From Candidatus Thermoplasmatota archaeon (GTDB lineage: Archaea; Thermoplasmatota; JASEFT01), in assembly GCA_030018475.1 (NCBI GenBank), contig JASEFT010000003.1:14710-56927 (forward strand): 42,218 nucleotides of DNA, written 5' to 3'. The translations under genes were made by a program, and so were the position numbers. Shown here in pieces: positions 14,056-18,932 of this stretch. The stretch's first letter is position 1. Every line of letters begins with the position of its first letter. The notes beneath the pieces were generated by a model. It was not told the origin of the DNA and made no database searches. It saw only the letters and a program-made list of their open reading frames with translations.

Positions 14056-14532
14056 CTACTCTTTTATTCCTCTAAGCTCGTTATAAGTTTTTGTTAACGT
14101 TATATTCTCAGTAATTGATTTTATTTCGCTAGCATCCAATCTTAATCTTCGTTCTAAAGGCTTGATATAAATTAAAATTTTATCTATTTTCCAAGGCGAG
14201 AATTGAGTAGCAATTACTAAATCGTAAATTTTACCTGCATCTTTTCCGTCGCTGCTAAGTACTTTTTTCTTCATGAGTTCGCAGCAAGGCATATGCACTA
14301 AGCTGACTTCACCAATAGCGCTTCCCTTGCCTTCTAAAACAATTCTCTTCTTTGCTTCTTCTAGATTTTTTATTGCTGCAAATTTGTATTCCTGCGGCTT
14401 TCTCAGTGCTTTCTTCAAAATTATATTTTCTACAGTCCATGTTTTGGTGTTCATTACAGAGCAGTGCACTTTACCAAGTTTATCGCCTAAAGCTGTGAAT
14501 CCACTATAGCCTTTCAGTTCTGATAGCAACAT
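14056..14532 (-). CDS. PRC-barrel-like protein, last gene of the small-protein operon
   Basis: 158 residues with two PRC-barrel-like halves. The first opens MLLSELKGYSGF and the second is near residues 87-150 (KKKVLSSDGKDAGKIYDL, then a KIDKILIYI strand). PRC-barrel proteins act as adaptors in ribosome maturation, photosynthesis and, in haloarchaea, cell division; which applies here is not shown. AGGTGAT lies 6 nt upstream of the ATG at 14530-14532. It is the sixth gene of the minus-strand operon starting at 16275, so it may be the soluble partner of the coiled-coil and membrane-anchored proteins encoded ahead of it. Confidence 0.7.
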   Translation of the reverse strand: MLLSELKGYSGFTALGDKLGKVHCSVMNTKTWTVENIILKKALRKPQEYKFAAIKNLEEAKKRIVLEGKGSAIGEVSLVHMPCCELMKKKVLSSDGKDAGKIYDLVIATQFSPWKIDKILIYIKPLERRLRLDASEIKSITENITLTKTYNELRGIKE

Positions 14533-14542
14533 TTTTTATCAC

Positions 14543-14875
14543 CTATTTAGCCATTTCTAAATATTTACAGTAAGGGCATTCTTTTTCGTAGTTTTTATAC
14601 ATTTTGCATTTGGGACAGAAATCAGAGCCGAATCTATATTTTCTTACAGTACCTTCCTTCGTAAATAATCTCGCTTCAAGTTCCGCCCATTCTCTTTTTT
14701 TAGCAATGCATTTTTTTGTATTGTAAACTTCTTTTCTTAAAGTTTCAAGGTCTAATTCAATATTGATAGCTCTGAGAAATTTTCTTAAATCTTCAAGTCT
14801 CAGCTCCAAATCCTCTTGTGCAAGTACATAGCTGACAAGTGAGCCTTCCAATCTTTTATCTTCAGCTTCTCTCAT
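14543..14875 (-). CDS. Small protein with C-terminal zinc ribbon, unknown function
   Basis: 110 residues. The N-terminal ~75 are charged and helical (LEDLRKFLRAINIELDLETL). The C-terminus holds a zinc ribbon of two CxxC pairs: FCPKCK and CPYCK, 13 residues between the pairs. I do not recognise the family. The ATG at 14873-14875 overlaps the stop of the upstream gene by 4 nt (ATGA), so it is translationally coupled to the coiled-coil protein at 14872-15216. It sits between that gene and the PRC-barrel-like gene. Confidence 0.75.
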   Translation of the reverse strand: MREAEDKRLEGSLVSYVLAQEDLELRLEDLRKFLRAINIELDLETLRKEVYNTKKCIAKKREWAELEARLFTKEGTVRKYRFGSDFCPKCKMYKNYEKECPYCKYLEMAK

Positions 14876-15216
14876 TTTTTCTTTTTAGTTATAACTTCTA
14901 CCCTTCGCTCTAAACCAGTAACTTTTGCATCTATATCTAAGGTAAAATCGTCAAGTAATTTTAGCTTCTCATCCATAGCACTGTATCTTTGTTCGTAAAC
15001 TAGCAAGTCGTTTTTAGTTACTAAATTATATTCTGCAATGTAGTCATCGAAATTCTCATCTAAGTATCTTTCAATTCTAGAATCCCAGAGCCTTCTCCTA
15101 TACGCTACTTCAGGTGCGTGAACTACTTCTTCGCCTATAAAGAATTTTTTTATTCTTTCCCAAACACTTTCACGCCCATACTCTACAGGCACTTCCGCTT
15201 CTGTGCTATATTCCAT
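14872..15216 (-). CDS. Coiled-coil protein, paralog family member 3
   Basis: 114 residues, no membrane helix. The core reads RIERYLDENFDDYIAEYNL then VTKNDL, followed by a heptad-like coil ending LERRVEVI and a lysine tail. The same module occurs in the proteins at 15654-15980 and 15988-16275, so the three are paralogs. Start ATG 15216 is preferred over the in-frame GTG at 15228. GGTGGTGAT, lying in the last codons of the upstream gene, is 4 nt from it. The upstream stop is 1 nt away. Function unknown; shape and context suggest an oligomeric scaffold partner. Confidence 0.75.
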   Translation of the reverse strand: MEYSTEAEVPVEYGRESVWERIKKFFIGEEVVHAPEVAYRRRLWDSRIERYLDENFDDYIAEYNLVTKNDLLVYEQRYSAMDEKLKLLDDFTLDIDAKVTGLERRVEVITKKKK

Positions 15217-15217
15217 T

Positions 15218-15640
15218 TTAATCACCACCTATGTTTCTAAACAACCCTCTTTCATATTTCTTTACTTTATTTAGAGTATCTGTCAGCCTTGCAAGATCAT
15301 GACCTATCTCAAGTCTTTGTGTGCGAGCTTCAATTTCGTTCATTAATCCAACAGTTCTTCGCGACAGTACAGCTGAGTCTGCTTTTGTAGATTCTACCCT
15401 TTCGCGCTCCTCATCACTGAGAATTACAGATGCGTTTTTCAAGCCTTCAAAATAAGCTTTTTTCGACAGAATTTCAAGTTTTTTACCGTCCAAGCCTATT
15501 TCTGCTAATCGTGCAGCCTGCTTTGCACTCTTAACTTTCACTATAGTTCTTCCTATAGCGATTACTAATATTATCATGCCTATGAGTACTGCTAGAAGAA
15601 CAAAATTGGCTGCAATTGCAGCTCCGATTTCACTCAACAT
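15218..15640 (-). CDS. Membrane-anchored coiled-coil protein, unknown function
   Basis: 140 residues. One N-terminal membrane helix (residues ~8-30, AANFVLLAVLIGMIILVIAI) leads to a basic stretch (TIVKVKSAKQAAR) and a long charged helical region that is probably cytoplasmic. That region has SDEERERVESTKADSAVL and IGHDLARLTDTLNKVKKYE. It lacks the YLDE/DL module of its neighbours, so it is a different family. GGGAGAG lies 5 nt upstream of the ATG at 15638-15640. It is the third gene of the six-gene operon and one of two membrane-anchored members. Confidence 0.75.
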   Translation of the reverse strand: MLSEIGAAIAANFVLLAVLIGMIILVIAIGRTIVKVKSAKQAARLAEIGLDGKKLEILSKKAYFEGLKNASVILSDEERERVESTKADSAVLSRRTVGLMNEIEARTQRLEIGHDLARLTDTLNKVKKYERGLFRNIGGD

Positions 15641-15653
15641 TTCTCTCTCCCTT

Positions 15654-15980
15654 TTAAGCTGCTTCTAGTTTATTTAATGTGGATTCTAACTTCTCTAATC
15701 GTGGCTCGAAGCTTGTTCTGAACTTTTTGATTTTTTCTAACCCTTTACCTATAGAATCCAGCTTCTTACCAATTTCTGCACACCACGTTTTAACGTCAGC
15801 TCTTGACTGCAAATCCCATTCTTTAACTATATCTTTGAAATGCTCATCGAAATACAACTCGACATGACTGGGTACAGGTACTATTGCTTTCTTTATTCGC
15901 CACATAGCCCAGAGCCAAATCGCAATCGCAATAAGAAGCACTATTGCAAACAAGAACCCATACAAGAATTCAACATCCAT
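15654..15980 (-). CDS. Membrane-anchored coiled-coil protein, paralog family member 2
   Basis: 108 residues. An N-terminal membrane helix (~5-27, YGFLFAIVLLIAIAIWLWAM) is followed by basic WRIKKA. Then comes the shared module HVELYFDEHFKDIVKEWDL, SRADV and a coiled coil ending LEKLESTLNKLEAA. It is the membrane-bound version of the soluble paralogs at 15988-16275 and 14872-15216. Start ATG 15980 is preferred to TTG 15986: GGGTGA is 7 nt upstream of it. Function unknown. Confidence 0.75.
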   Translation of the reverse strand: MDVEFLYGFLFAIVLLIAIAIWLWAMWRIKKAIVPVPSHVELYFDEHFKDIVKEWDLQSRADVKTWCAEIGKKLDSIGKGLEKIKKFRTSFEPRLEKLESTLNKLEAA

Positions 15981-15987
15981 TTTCAAT

Positions 15988-16275
15988 TCACCCTTTCACT
16001 CCATATTTAATCTCCGCCCTTTCTACCCTTTTTTCAATATTATCAACGCGTTTTATAGTTTCTGATTTCCAACTGTCAATCTCCGAAATCTCTGTTTCAT
16101 AGCCTACAAATCTTTTGTCTATATCCTCAAGGTCGCGCTTAGTCGCTAGTTTGTACTCGTCCATAAGCTCGGGTAAGCGCTCGCTTAAGTAGATATCTAC
16201 TTTTTTAGATATTGCTACAGGGTGGGCTCTTAAACCTGCTTTCGCACGCTCTATAATACCTTTGCCTTTTACCAT
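15988..16275 (-). CDS. Coiled-coil protein, paralog family member 1, first gene of the operon
   Basis: 95 residues, soluble. A basic N-terminus (GIIERAKAGLRAHPVAIS) precedes the shared module KKVDIYLSERLPELMDEYKL, ATKRDLEDIDKR, and a coil with IKRVDNIEKRVERAEI. The pattern Y-L/F-D/S-E ... E-Y/W-x-L ... DL is common to the three paralogs in this operon. It is the promoter-proximal gene, with a TATA box at 16309-16322 and a short leader containing GGGG. It ends 8 nt before the next start. Function unknown. Confidence 0.75.
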   Translation of the reverse strand: MVKGKGIIERAKAGLRAHPVAISKKVDIYLSERLPELMDEYKLATKRDLEDIDKRFVGYETEISEIDSWKSETIKRVDNIEKRVERAEIKYGVKG

Positions 16276-16333: not shown

Positions 16334-16681
16334 CTAAAACAGCCCGAAATCTAACTTTTTGATGCTATCGTAAACTTCGTAAAAATCGAATTTTTCATCT
16401 AATCTCAGACTTCCTGATTCTATGTATTTCTCTAGCTCTGAGATGACTTCTTGCTCAGTTATAAGTTTAGGATTTCTAGCGCTTGCAATAACAGCAAAAA
16501 TTTTGTTTTCATCAAAGCTATCGAGCTCTAGAGCTACACGATCTTTGATAGTCTTCTTTTCGTTATAAATTAAGCCAAGTGTGCAAGCCACTTCTACAGC
16601 TTCTTCTTTACTACTAAGAATACCTTTTTCGAGTAGTCGCGATATTTTCGAATTAAAATTTTTACTTATTAAGATATGCAT
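16334..16681 (-). CDS. Small partner of the DndD-like ATPase, resembles dnd-system-associated protein
   Basis: From ATG 16681 it has 115 residues; an upstream in-frame start at 16726 would add 15 residues and overlap the ATPase gene by 58 nt instead of 13. The layout is SKNFNSKISRLLEKGILSSK, then EEAVEVACTLGL, a charged linker, and ELEKYIESGSLRL near the end. From memory this recalls small proteins annotated as dnd-system-associated (FKSK...FAAALG ... EYANGGL). The resemblance is weak and unverified. The gene follows the ATPase with overlapping frames, so the two are probably made together. A ribosome binding site is not obvious. Confidence 0.55.
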   Translation of the reverse strand: MHILISKNFNSKISRLLEKGILSSKEEAVEVACTLGLIYNEKKTIKDRVALELDSFDENKIFAVIASARNPKLITEQEVISELEKYIESGSLRLDEKFDFYEVYDSIKKLDFGLF

Positions 16682-18357
16682 TTTATTCTCGAGCTCCTTA
16701 TAGTCTCGTTGTGAACTAACTCCCAAGAGCTATCTGCAAATTCTTTTATATCTTTATAATCTTCATCTGTAACTAAAATTATTAGCTGATTGGCTAATTT
16801 TTGTAAGTTTGCAATTAAGTTCTTTTTGTGAATGCTATCAAGTCTTGTAAAAGGCGCATCTATAACAAGGAACTCGTTACTAAGCCCTGCAATTAGTGAC
16901 AGTCCTACTATTTGTAGCTCTCCATCTGAGAGTCTTTCCAAAGCGCTTCCTAACATTTCTAGTTTTCCAGTACTATCTAATGCTATTCCTTCATATTCCG
17001 CAGGCTTGTTTGTAAGTCGCTTTAGGGTATGAGATGCCCTCTCAGTCATAGCTGCACTTTCTTCTCTGCTTTTGCATTCTATAATTTCGTCAAATGCGCA
17101 TATCAAATTTTCTAATTTTCTAATTTTCAGCAAGATATTTTTCCTGCTCCTAGACTTGAATTTTCTAATCTTTTTCGCTACATTCTTATACTCTTCTTCA
17201 AGTTCTATCACTCTAAGCTCTCTTGCCTTCCTCTCTAATTTAAGCTCTTCGAGCTTTTTAGTCAAATCAGCAAAATTTAAATTCCTAGCTTTAGGAATAG
17301 CATGTAAAAGCTCTTTTCGCTCTTTTTTTAACTCTTCTACATTAATTTTCAAGTTTCTTGTTTTTTCAGCTGCTGAATTCAGTTCATAGCTACTTTGTGC
17401 ATATCCTTCAAGTGGTAGACTTGCAAAAAGCTCCTCTTCCTTTCTTAACCTGCTCGCTAAACTAGCTATTTCACGCTTGCCGAAATGCGAAGTTGATAGT
17501 TTGCTACCGCATATACATTTTTCTTCAGCCAATATTTTCTCTAAAAGTTCTCTTTCCGCAGATAATCGACCTTGCTTTAAACGCGCTTTTATAGCTTCGT
17601 CTTTCCTTTTTAAAATTACTTTCACAGCCTCCTCTAAAAGAGTTTTTAAAATAAGCGCCTGAAAATTTTGCCTAAACTCCTTTTCCTTCTCTAAAAACTC
17701 TTTCGCTCTGCTTAACGTTTCTAACTCATCGATTTTAGAGCTCAAAATCTTTATTTTTTTGTTTTCTTCCGTTACTAATTTCTCTAGCTTACGAGCTTCT
17801 AATCTATTAACTTCGAGTCCAAGCGCTTTCTTAACTACTAACTTCATTTTTTCAAACTTGCTTAGCGAGCGTTCTAATTTGGATTTTAAGAGTTCTAAAT
17901 CATTTTTAGCATCTTTAAGTTCTTTTATGCCCCAGATCTCTTCAAAACTAAGTCCGCCAATAACTCGCGCAAATTTTTCGCAGTCCATTATTGAGAACTT
18001 GGCTATACTCTCAGGAATTATATTTTCAATTTTTAGCAAGCTTTTAGAGCCGTTAACTTTTAATGTAAAATCTTCTTTTCCATTTACTATTTTACGCTCT
18101 GCTCTGTAACTATTACCGTCATGCTCGAATTCTAAATTTACTCTACAAAAACTCTCGTTTCTTTGAGTTGCATATTCGTTTATAACCTTGCCAGAAGCTT
18201 TTCCATAGAGCGCGAACAATATACTTTCAACTAAGGTTGATTTACCATACCCATTCATACCTTCAATAACAAAAATCTTTTTATTACCATCGAATCTGAG
18301 TACGTTATTGCCGTAGAATATTTTGTAGTTTTCTAACTCAAGTTCTTTAAGAATCAT
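16669..18357 (-). CDS. SMC/RecF-type AAA ATPase, DndD-like
   Basis: 562 residues with the layout of an SMC-like DNA-repair or defence ATPase. Walker A is GMNGYGKST (33-41). A long charged coiled-coil region runs ~150-430, broken by CICG at 281-284 where Rad50 has its CxxC hook. The ABC signature is LSDGELQ (476-482). Walker B is FLVIDAPFTRLD (496-507), followed by a switch-like TDED (near 531). The VIDxPxxRLD form and CICG are typical of DndD, the ATPase of DNA phosphorothioation systems, as opposed to Rad50. No dndB or dndC lies nearby, so this is not a standard dnd cluster. The start overlaps the end of the 42-codon gene upstream, and the 3' end overlaps the small partner gene. Confidence 0.8.
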   Translation of the reverse strand: MILKELELENYKIFYGNNVLRFDGNKKIFVIEGMNGYGKSTLVESILFALYGKASGKVINEYATQRNESFCRVNLEFEHDGNSYRAERKIVNGKEDFTLKVNGSKSLLKIENIIPESIAKFSIMDCEKFARVIGGLSFEEIWGIKELKDAKNDLELLKSKLERSLSKFEKMKLVVKKALGLEVNRLEARKLEKLVTEENKKIKILSSKIDELETLSRAKEFLEKEKEFRQNFQALILKTLLEEAVKVILKRKDEAIKARLKQGRLSAERELLEKILAEEKCICGSKLSTSHFGKREIASLASRLRKEEELFASLPLEGYAQSSYELNSAAEKTRNLKINVEELKKERKELLHAIPKARNLNFADLTKKLEELKLERKARELRVIELEEEYKNVAKKIRKFKSRSRKNILLKIRKLENLICAFDEIIECKSREESAAMTERASHTLKRLTNKPAEYEGIALDSTGKLEMLGSALERLSDGELQIVGLSLIAGLSNEFLVIDAPFTRLDSIHKKNLIANLQKLANQLIILVTDEDYKDIKEFADSSWELVHNETIRSSRIKCIS

Positions 18358-18481
18358 CTAACAAATCCTCTATTTCTCTCAATCTCTGAGTTTTATTATT
18401 AACAGCTTGCAATCTTATAATCTCGCGTATGATGCGCTCATTGACATCATACTTTTTGCAAATTTCCGCTATATTTACCAT
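18353..18481 (-). CDS. 42-residue HTH-like small protein ahead of the DndD-like ATPase
   Basis: This ORF starts at ATG 18479-18481 and ends with TAA at 18353-18355. It encodes 42 residues: an HTH-like start (VNIAEICKKYDVNERIIREI) and a charged helix (TQRLREIEDLLDD). Its stop overlaps the ATPase start by 5 nt, which implies coupled translation. A TATA-like element 26 nt upstream fits a leaderless first gene. The overlap, promoter spacing and protein-like composition support a real gene. Function unknown; a DNA- or partner-binding accessory is plausible. Confidence 0.6.
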
Positions 18482-18560: not shown

Positions 18561-18932
18561 ATGAAAGCAAGGGAACAAAAACTTTACGATTTTGTAATAA
18601 GTAAAATTACTAAAATTCGAGAGCAGGGTGAAGCGCCAAAATCAGATATTCTTTCTTTAGATAATTTTGTATGCGATTTGTGTAAAGGAGTAATACAAAG
18701 AGCTAAAATTACTCAATGCCCTTTCTGCGGTAGATGGATTTGCAGAGCGCAGTGCTGGGATAGTAAAGAGCGAGGTTGTCTTGCATGCTCTGGGGTAATA
18801 AAATTATGTAGGGAGAGTGTGAAGCCGGGAAAAGCTATAAAAACGGCAGAGCCTGAAGTCAGGAAAGGAAAAGGCAGAAAGCTTGTTAAGCTCAAAGGAA
18901 TTGTTAAAAAGGTCAGATGGAAGAAGAAATAG
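18561..18932 (+). CDS. Zinc-finger protein with basic C-terminal tail
   Basis: 123 residues. The centre holds a multi-cysteine zinc-binding fold: CDLC (~37-40), CPFC (~53-56), GRWIC, AQCW and GCLAC, arranged like a treble-clef/AN1- or LIM-type finger able to bind two zinc ions. The last ~35 residues are lysine/arginine rich (VRKGKGRKLVKLKG), which may bind nucleic acid. I cannot name the family. It is divergent from the ATPase operon and overlaps the next gene by 16 nt. Confidence 0.75.
   Translation: MKAREQKLYDFVISKITKIREQGEAPKSDILSLDNFVCDLCKGVIQRAKITQCPFCGRWICRAQCWDSKERGCLACSGVIKLCRESVKPGKAIKTAEPEVRKGKGRKLVKLKGIVKKVRWKKK

What the first reader, a model, noticed from the sequence alone, without database searches (positions are those of the whole stretch)
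16334..18481. Minimal DndD-like ATPase module: 42-residue HTH-like ORF, SMC-type ATPase, small dnd-associated-like protein
The ATPase has DndD-like VIDAPFTRLD and CICG features but no DndB, DndC or nuclease next to it. It overlaps at both ends with tiny genes: a 42-codon HTH-like ORF and a ~115-residue protein that recalls dnd-system-associated proteins. Overlaps on both sides imply a three-subunit unit. It could be a stand-alone DNA repair, DNA-sensing or defence complex.
Basis: partly seen in the sequence, partly recalled or inferred. Interest (0 to 1): 0.7.

Follow-up and report, generated by a model that had tools for sequence, protein, structure and literature searches.

The report
Nuclease-free PbeBCD-type DNA-scanning trio
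In several lineages of Thermoplasmatota archaea, the three-gene core of a known virus-defence machine (a DNA-gripping motor, its DNA-binding partner and a tiny docking protein) is kept without the cutting or DNA-marking enzymes it usually works with, which makes its own job directly testable.

Summary
The three overlapping genes are real: small protein (SP, 44 aa), ABC ATPase (562 aa) and a 115-aa protein, all minus strand. The same order recurs in six Thermoplasmatota genomes, including all 3 held genomes of the window's class, and dN/dS in two relative pairs shows purifying selection. The ATPase is not Rad50: the genome has its own Rad50-Mre11 pair and a tree separates them (100/99). Its best profile is PbeC, and it carries the CICG hook seen in 12 of 12 PbeA-linked ATPases and 0 of 11 DndD-type ones. 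The third protein is DndE/PbeD-like. The 'HTH-like' ORF is PbeB/Sp-DndD-like and matches the C-terminal tail of DndC, the segment reported to dock on the DndD head. So this is the PbeB-PbeC-PbeD core without PbeA; no DndC was found in the genome. The six PbeA-less trios form one clade (100/97) among PbeA-bearing relatives. Function is inferred: published data show pbeBCD without pbeA keeps weak antiviral activity, so I favour a non-cutting DNA-scanning roadblock. A housekeeping role is a serious rival, because no defence genes were found beside the window's trio. New variant of a known kind.

The parts
18347..18481 (-). SP: 44-aa PbeB / Sp-DndD-like small protein, equivalent to the DndD-docking tail of DndC
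   Evidence: Pfam PF20306 top hit E 0.034; 5 of 7 relatives match it, best 1.6e-5; third of 6,057 ORFs with a model made only from plasmid SPs, E 0.035; hhalign of six trio SPs to the SP family 56.5% and to the DndC tail 52.9%, 0 of 200 column shuffles as good
16669..18357 (-). CxC/PbeC-type ABC ATPase, 562 aa, shortened coiled coil with CICG hook at residues 281-284
   Evidence: PADLOC PbeC PDLC02726 1.7e-33; Pfam AAA_23 6.5e-11; Walker A GMNGYGKS, signature LSDGE, Walker B region VIDAPF; CICG; trees
16334..16681 (-). DndE/PbeD-like 115-aa protein, predicted double ribbon-helix-helix DNA-binding partner of the ATPase
   Evidence: profile-profile match of six trio members to eight PbeD/DndE-type proteins, 94.7% probability, E 5.9e-8, 0 of 200 shuffles as good; no single-sequence hit in Pfam, NCBIfam or PADLOC

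Best explanation
The locus is a PbeB-PbeC-PbeD unit, i.e. the CxC-type ABC-ATPase/DndE pair plus its docking protein, that has lost the PbeA helicase-nuclease and has no phosphorothioation enzyme. Shown here by sequence: family assignment of the three genes, gene order, conservation, one clade, purifying selection in relatives, absence of a PbeA-grade match and of DndC in the genome. Inferred: two ATPases close their heads around DNA in an ATP-dependent way; the DndE-like protein sits on the distal coiled coil and contacts DNA through its two ribbon-helix-helix units; the 44-aa SP clamps the ATPase head where DndC's tail would dock. Without a cutting partner the complex would act as a DNA-scanning roadblock that holds back replication of foreign DNA, perhaps reading an unlinked N6/N4 methylation mark as self. 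I put the family assignment at about 0.9 and the defence roadblock at about 0.5; the figure below is for the whole statement.
For: ATPase best profile PbeC; C-x(1-2)-C in 6 of 6 trio and 12 of 12 PbeA-linked ATPases against 0 of 11 DndD-type; trio clade 100/97, inside a group with PbeA-bearing L025 and L051 at 98/97. Third gene vs PbeD/DndE: E 5.9e-8, 0 of 200 shuffles. SP blind model: the top 8 of 6,057 ORFs are 6 SP ORFs next to ATPases (window's third) and 2 DndC proteins. In R. phaseoli a 379-aa DndC is followed by a separate SP and then DndD, whereas three DndCs of 541, 511 and 493 aa carry the tail and have no SP gene. PMC12193691 (passages and section 7): residues 433-482 of E. coli DndC dock on both halves of the DndD head in an AlphaFold3 model, and a triple mutation there breaks binding; DndE binds coiled coil 2 of DndD. 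[quoted passage not shown] No DndC at E<=1e-3 in G000, G001 or G002; PbeA-grade match only in G262 of 9 genomes.
Against: No functional data for any trio. Window gene context is housekeeping (transporter, transketolase, Hyp maturation, TYW1, MscS), with no PADLOC hit in 10 other window proteins, nine of them flanking ORFs, which is unusual for defence. The trio is fixed in its class (3 of 3) rather than patchy. The published weak resistance of pbeBCD was measured in cells that also carried dndCDEA. The residues mutated in DndC are only partly kept in the window's SP (I/Q/K for L458/E462/R471) and less so in G001 and G002. AlphaFold models of the third protein and the ATPase were poor (mean pLDDT 51 and 46), so the fold was not confirmed.
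Confidence: 0.5

Rival explanations
1. Domesticated housekeeping complex: the trio was recruited from a defence system to chromosome maintenance (repair, replication restart or DNA organisation), working like a small SMC/Rad50-like clamp with the SP as head-binding subunit.
For: Fixed in 3 of 3 genomes of the window's class and 3 of 5 of a second class; the tree of the trio ATPases repeats the Rad50 tree of the same six genomes; neighbours include Hel308 and Cgi121 (L012; Hel308 also L011), PCNA (L013) and an RNA-binding protein (L009, L010); no relatives in viral contigs and only partial ones in phages and plasmids.
Against: Only six genomes and few informative splits; neighbours differ between lineages; a PbeC-type ATPase is in only 16 of 389 genomes of the phylum, so not essential; closest relatives are defence-type.
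Confidence: 0.3
2. Core with a partner in trans: the complex works with an unlinked helicase, nuclease or DNA methylase elsewhere in the genome, so it is a full restriction system with scattered genes.
For: N6/N4 methylase relatives in 6 of 6 trio genomes; in G002 one lies about 2 kb from the trio; weak PbeA-profile hits occur in 9 of 9 genomes searched.
Against: The PbeA profile also rings in 14 of 14 control genomes, so these weak hits look like generic SF2 helicases; methylases are common; no partner was seen linked in the other five.
Confidence: 0.15
3. Decaying remnant of a PbeABCD system on its way out.
For: PbeA missing; ATPase 562-577 aa in the window's class against 644-683 aa in most PbeA-linked relatives.
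Against: All three ORFs intact in six genomes of two classes; dN/dS 0.13-0.39; ATPase motifs intact.
Confidence: 0.05

Closest known systems
PbeABCD / CxC ABC-ATPase system (PMC6459918; PMC10853773)
   Same: Gene order SP-ATPase-DndE type, CxC hook, PbeC as best profile, each of the three subunits homologous
   Different: No PbeA (HKD/PLD plus SF2 helicase), no linked DndCDEA; ATPase 562 aa rather than about 650
DndDE core of the DndABCDE phosphorothioation system
   Same: DndD-like head motifs, DndE-like partner, SP equivalent to the DndC tail
   Different: CxC hook present (absent in the 11 DndD-type ATPases sampled), no DndC in the genome, no DndA or DndB beside it
Rad50-Mre11 / SbcCD
   Same: ABC ATPase with coiled coil and Cys hook
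   Different: Separate clade (100/99); the genome has its own Rad50 and Mre11-like gene on another contig; no Mre11-like partner here

Membership tests
PbeABCD / CxC system | CxC-type ABC ATPase (PbeC) | tested here: met
   PbeC 1.7e-33, CICG, tree
PbeABCD / CxC system | cognate DndE (PbeD) directly downstream | tested here: met
   hhalign E 6.8e-9 and 5.9e-8 with 0 of 200 shuffles; the single window sequence is weak with the blind model, E 2.4, rank 15
PbeABCD / CxC system | small protein PbeB directly upstream | tested here: met
PbeABCD / CxC system | PbeA: HKD/PLD nuclease fused to SF2 helicase | tested here: not met
   none beside the six trios; genome-wide best 4.7e-12 in G000, generic SF2, against 2.3e-134 in G262
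DndABCDE phosphorothioation system | DndC sulfurtransferase | tested here: not met
   no match at E<=1e-3 in G000, G001 or G002; weak matches below the cut-off in G007, G018 and G026
DndABCDE phosphorothioation system | DndD equivalog score | tested here: not met
   64.1 bits against cut-off 245.85
Rad50/SbcC | groups with Rad50, Mre11 partner | tested here: not met
DndE family | two ribbon-helix-helix units | tested here: inconclusive
   AlphaFold pLDDT 51; helices 7-18, 25-34, 58-69, 76-88, 100-110 fit the order but no strand was predicted
Anti-virus defence | protects cells from virus or plasmid | not testable with these tools
   needs an experiment

The most novel reading that the evidence does not exclude
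A nuclease-free and modification-free SMC-like complex, derived from a defence system and kept vertically in two classes of Thermoplasmatota, in which a 44-aa protein equivalent to the DndC tail serves as the whole head-binding subunit; it acts on DNA by gripping alone, for genome maintenance or as a non-cutting replication block.
Probability: 0.35. Interest if true: 0.72.

Novelty: new variant of a known kind. Interest (0 to 1): 0.5.

Why it matters
How PbeABCD stops a virus without cutting its DNA is open, and two groups disagree on whether cleavage is involved (PMC6459918, PMC10853773). Natural PbeA-less units under purifying selection suggest that the SP-ATPase-DndE core has a job of its own and give a minimal complex to test. 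The match between SP and the DndC tail offers a specific role for a protein so far described as mostly disordered and possibly a negative regulator (PMC10853773): a plug that docks effectors on the ATPase head. I found no statement of that link in the parts read of PMC10853773, PMC6459918 and PMC12193691 or in the search listings; other literature was not available.

Tried and rejected
Rad50/SbcC identity: rejected by tree and by a separate Rad50-Mre11 pair.

Decaying remnant: disfavoured by dN/dS and intact motifs.

Structure route: both AlphaFold jobs were too poor to search, so no fold search was run. A profile search of the third protein against the PDB gave nothing credible. Virus-borne origin: two viral-contig scans found no relatives; tblastn in phages and plasmids gave two partial hits each. 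The genome survey was limited to the window's phylum; the outside comparison loci come from plasmid records only. Of 25 plasmid rows listed (46 records with a match), I fetched 13.

Tree rows: 39 rows; 8 long or odd rows were dropped for (named in its script). In one search the sister of the trio was L025 alone (94); L051, a long branch, sits between them (88/59), so the exact sister is unsure.

The first SP and DndE models contained trio members (L011; L013 in the DndE and ATPase models), so those E-values are partly circular; one search repeats the SP and DndE models with plasmid proteins only. In one search some of the L025 proteins were also in the models that then found them.

One search prints wrong letters for the hook motif (an indexing slip of mine); one search replaces that column.

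Full report
What is there. On the minus strand the window holds three overlapping ORFs: a 44-aa protein (18481-18347), a 562-aa ABC ATPase (18357-16669) and a 115-aa protein (16681-16334), with overlaps of 11 and 13 nt. The window is on contig 3 of a 1.41-Mb genome with 95.5% completeness. The two nearest relatives are MAGs titled Thermoplasmatales archaeon and Euryarchaeota archaeon, so I take the phylum to be Thermoplasmatota; that naming is inferred from those records.

Conservation. The ATPase has relatives at 40-43% identity in G001 and G002, the only other held genomes of the class, and at 32-34% in G007, G018 and G026. In all six the order is SP, ATPase, third protein. In G001 and G002 about 200-265 nt separate the ATPase from the third gene. 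With the PbeC profile, 16 of 389 genomes of the phylum match and 0 of 14 control genomes. Those 16 genomes hold 17 loci: 6 are trios with no PbeA and no DndC nearby, 6 have PbeA beside the ATPase, 4 have DndC beside it (one of these also has a PbeA-like gene on the other strand) and 1 has neither and no detected SP or third gene. Two further, more divergent loci (G041, G021) came; they show no PbeA or DndC. Within families and classes: 2 of 2 genomes of G007's family, 3 of 3 of the window's class and 3 of 5 of G007's class (the two without it are 72-81% complete).

The ATPase. Best PADLOC profile is PbeC at 1.7e-33, with DndD at 4.2e-20. NCBIfam DndD gives 8.8e-18 but far under its cut-off. 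A motif count separates the types: C-x(1-2)-C between the coiled coils in 6 of 6 trio ATPases (CICG or CLCG) and 12 of 12 PbeA-linked ones, and in 0 of 11 DndD-type ones. In a 31-row tree the trio rows form one clade (bootstrap/SH-aLRT 100/97), joined with two PbeA-bearing rows at 98/97, and Rad50 is separate (100/99) (the 39-row quick tree agrees that the trio and Rad50 are each one group). The genome's own Rad50 and an Mre11-like neighbour lie on contig 18 (Mre11 named by eye from its sequence). The trio and Rad50 trees show the same branching for the six genomes, as vertical descent would give, but with few informative splits.

The third protein. No family library hits the window sequence. 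A profile of six trio members against PbeD/DndE-type proteins aligns over most of the length: E 6.8e-9 against nine and 5.9e-8 against eight, with 0 of 200 column shuffles as good. A model from plasmid proteins alone ranks the window ORF 15th of 6,057 at E 2.4; the 14 above it are all ORFs that follow such an ATPase. PMC10853773 (sections 12, 13, 14, 16, 17 and passages read) states that PbeD is the DndE cognate and that DndE has two ribbon-helix-helix units; my AlphaFold model is too weak to test that.

The small protein. Five of seven family members match Pfam Sp-DndD. The G262 member matches both PbeB and residues 405-454 of a DndC profile. A blind model built from nine plasmid SPs puts six SP ORFs and two DndC proteins in the first eight of 6,057 ORFs, though the E-values are modest (0.00013 to 0.35). 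hhalign of the trio SPs against whole DndC proteins lands on the C-terminal tail, with 0 of 200 shuffles as good. A natural split supports this: Rhizobium phaseoli has a 379-aa DndC, a separate SP and then DndD, while three DndCs of 541, 511 and 493 aa carry the tail and have no SP gene. PMC12193691 (passages and section 7) reports that residues 433-482 of E. coli DndC dock on the DndD head in a model, and that L458D/E462A/R471A breaks binding in a pull-down. In an E. coli DndC fetched here those positions are L, E and R, and they fall within the SP match. In the window's SP they are I, Q and K; in G007 I, E and R; in G001 and G002 I, G/A and E. So the segment is homologous, but those contacts are not strictly kept.

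How it probably works. Published: PbeB, PbeC and PbeD are each absolutely needed for PbeABCD defence, PbeA only partly, and viral DNA stays uncut while replication is inhibited (PMC6459918, passages read). Inferred: SP caps the ATPase head, the third protein sits on the coiled coil, and the ATP-driven clamp scans or grips DNA. With PbeA gone the likeliest output is a roadblock; a housekeeping role is the main rival because the window's context lacks defence genes, neighbours elsewhere include Hel308, PCNA and other housekeeping genes, and the trio is fixed in its class. N6/N4 methylase relatives exist in all six trio genomes, unlinked in most, so a methylation mark cannot be excluded.

Novelty. 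Units lacking modification genes, and a fifth of taxa lacking a linked nuclease, are already reported in PMC10853773 (sections 12, 16, 17), so this is a new variant of a known kind. What appears new, within the searches, is the PbeA-less clade in Thermoplasmatota and the SP-DndC-tail link.

Noticed in passing
window 18561-18929 (+): Divergently transcribed 123-aa protein with a prokaryotic RING finger (Pfam Prok-RING_2, 9.6e-10), followed by an overlapping 97-aa ORF that looks like a membrane protein.
   Followed up: no
window 14056-16275 (-): Row of six small ORFs downstream of the trio, most without any confident family match (one PRC-barrel); several look like coiled-coil or membrane-anchored proteins.
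   Followed up: partly
L009 11317-11517, L010 7186-7449: In G001 and G002 a 200-265 nt insert separates ATPase and DndE-like gene; by eye its translated text resembles pieces seen elsewhere in the same genome, perhaps a dispersed repeat.
   Followed up: no
L043 412-2796, L042 424-2850, L039 204-2699: Rad50 proteins of the window's class show no C-x(1-2)-C hook in the region scanned, unlike those of G007, G018 and G026.
   Followed up: no
L012 10230-13254, L011 10870-13221, L013 6802-7587: Trios of the second class sit near Hel308 (two genera; Cgi121 checked by Pfam in L012 only) or PCNA.
   Followed up: partly
L060 1635-6829: Rhizobium phaseoli cluster: short DndC, separate SP, DndD, FtsK and a TusA-family protein.
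   Followed up: partly
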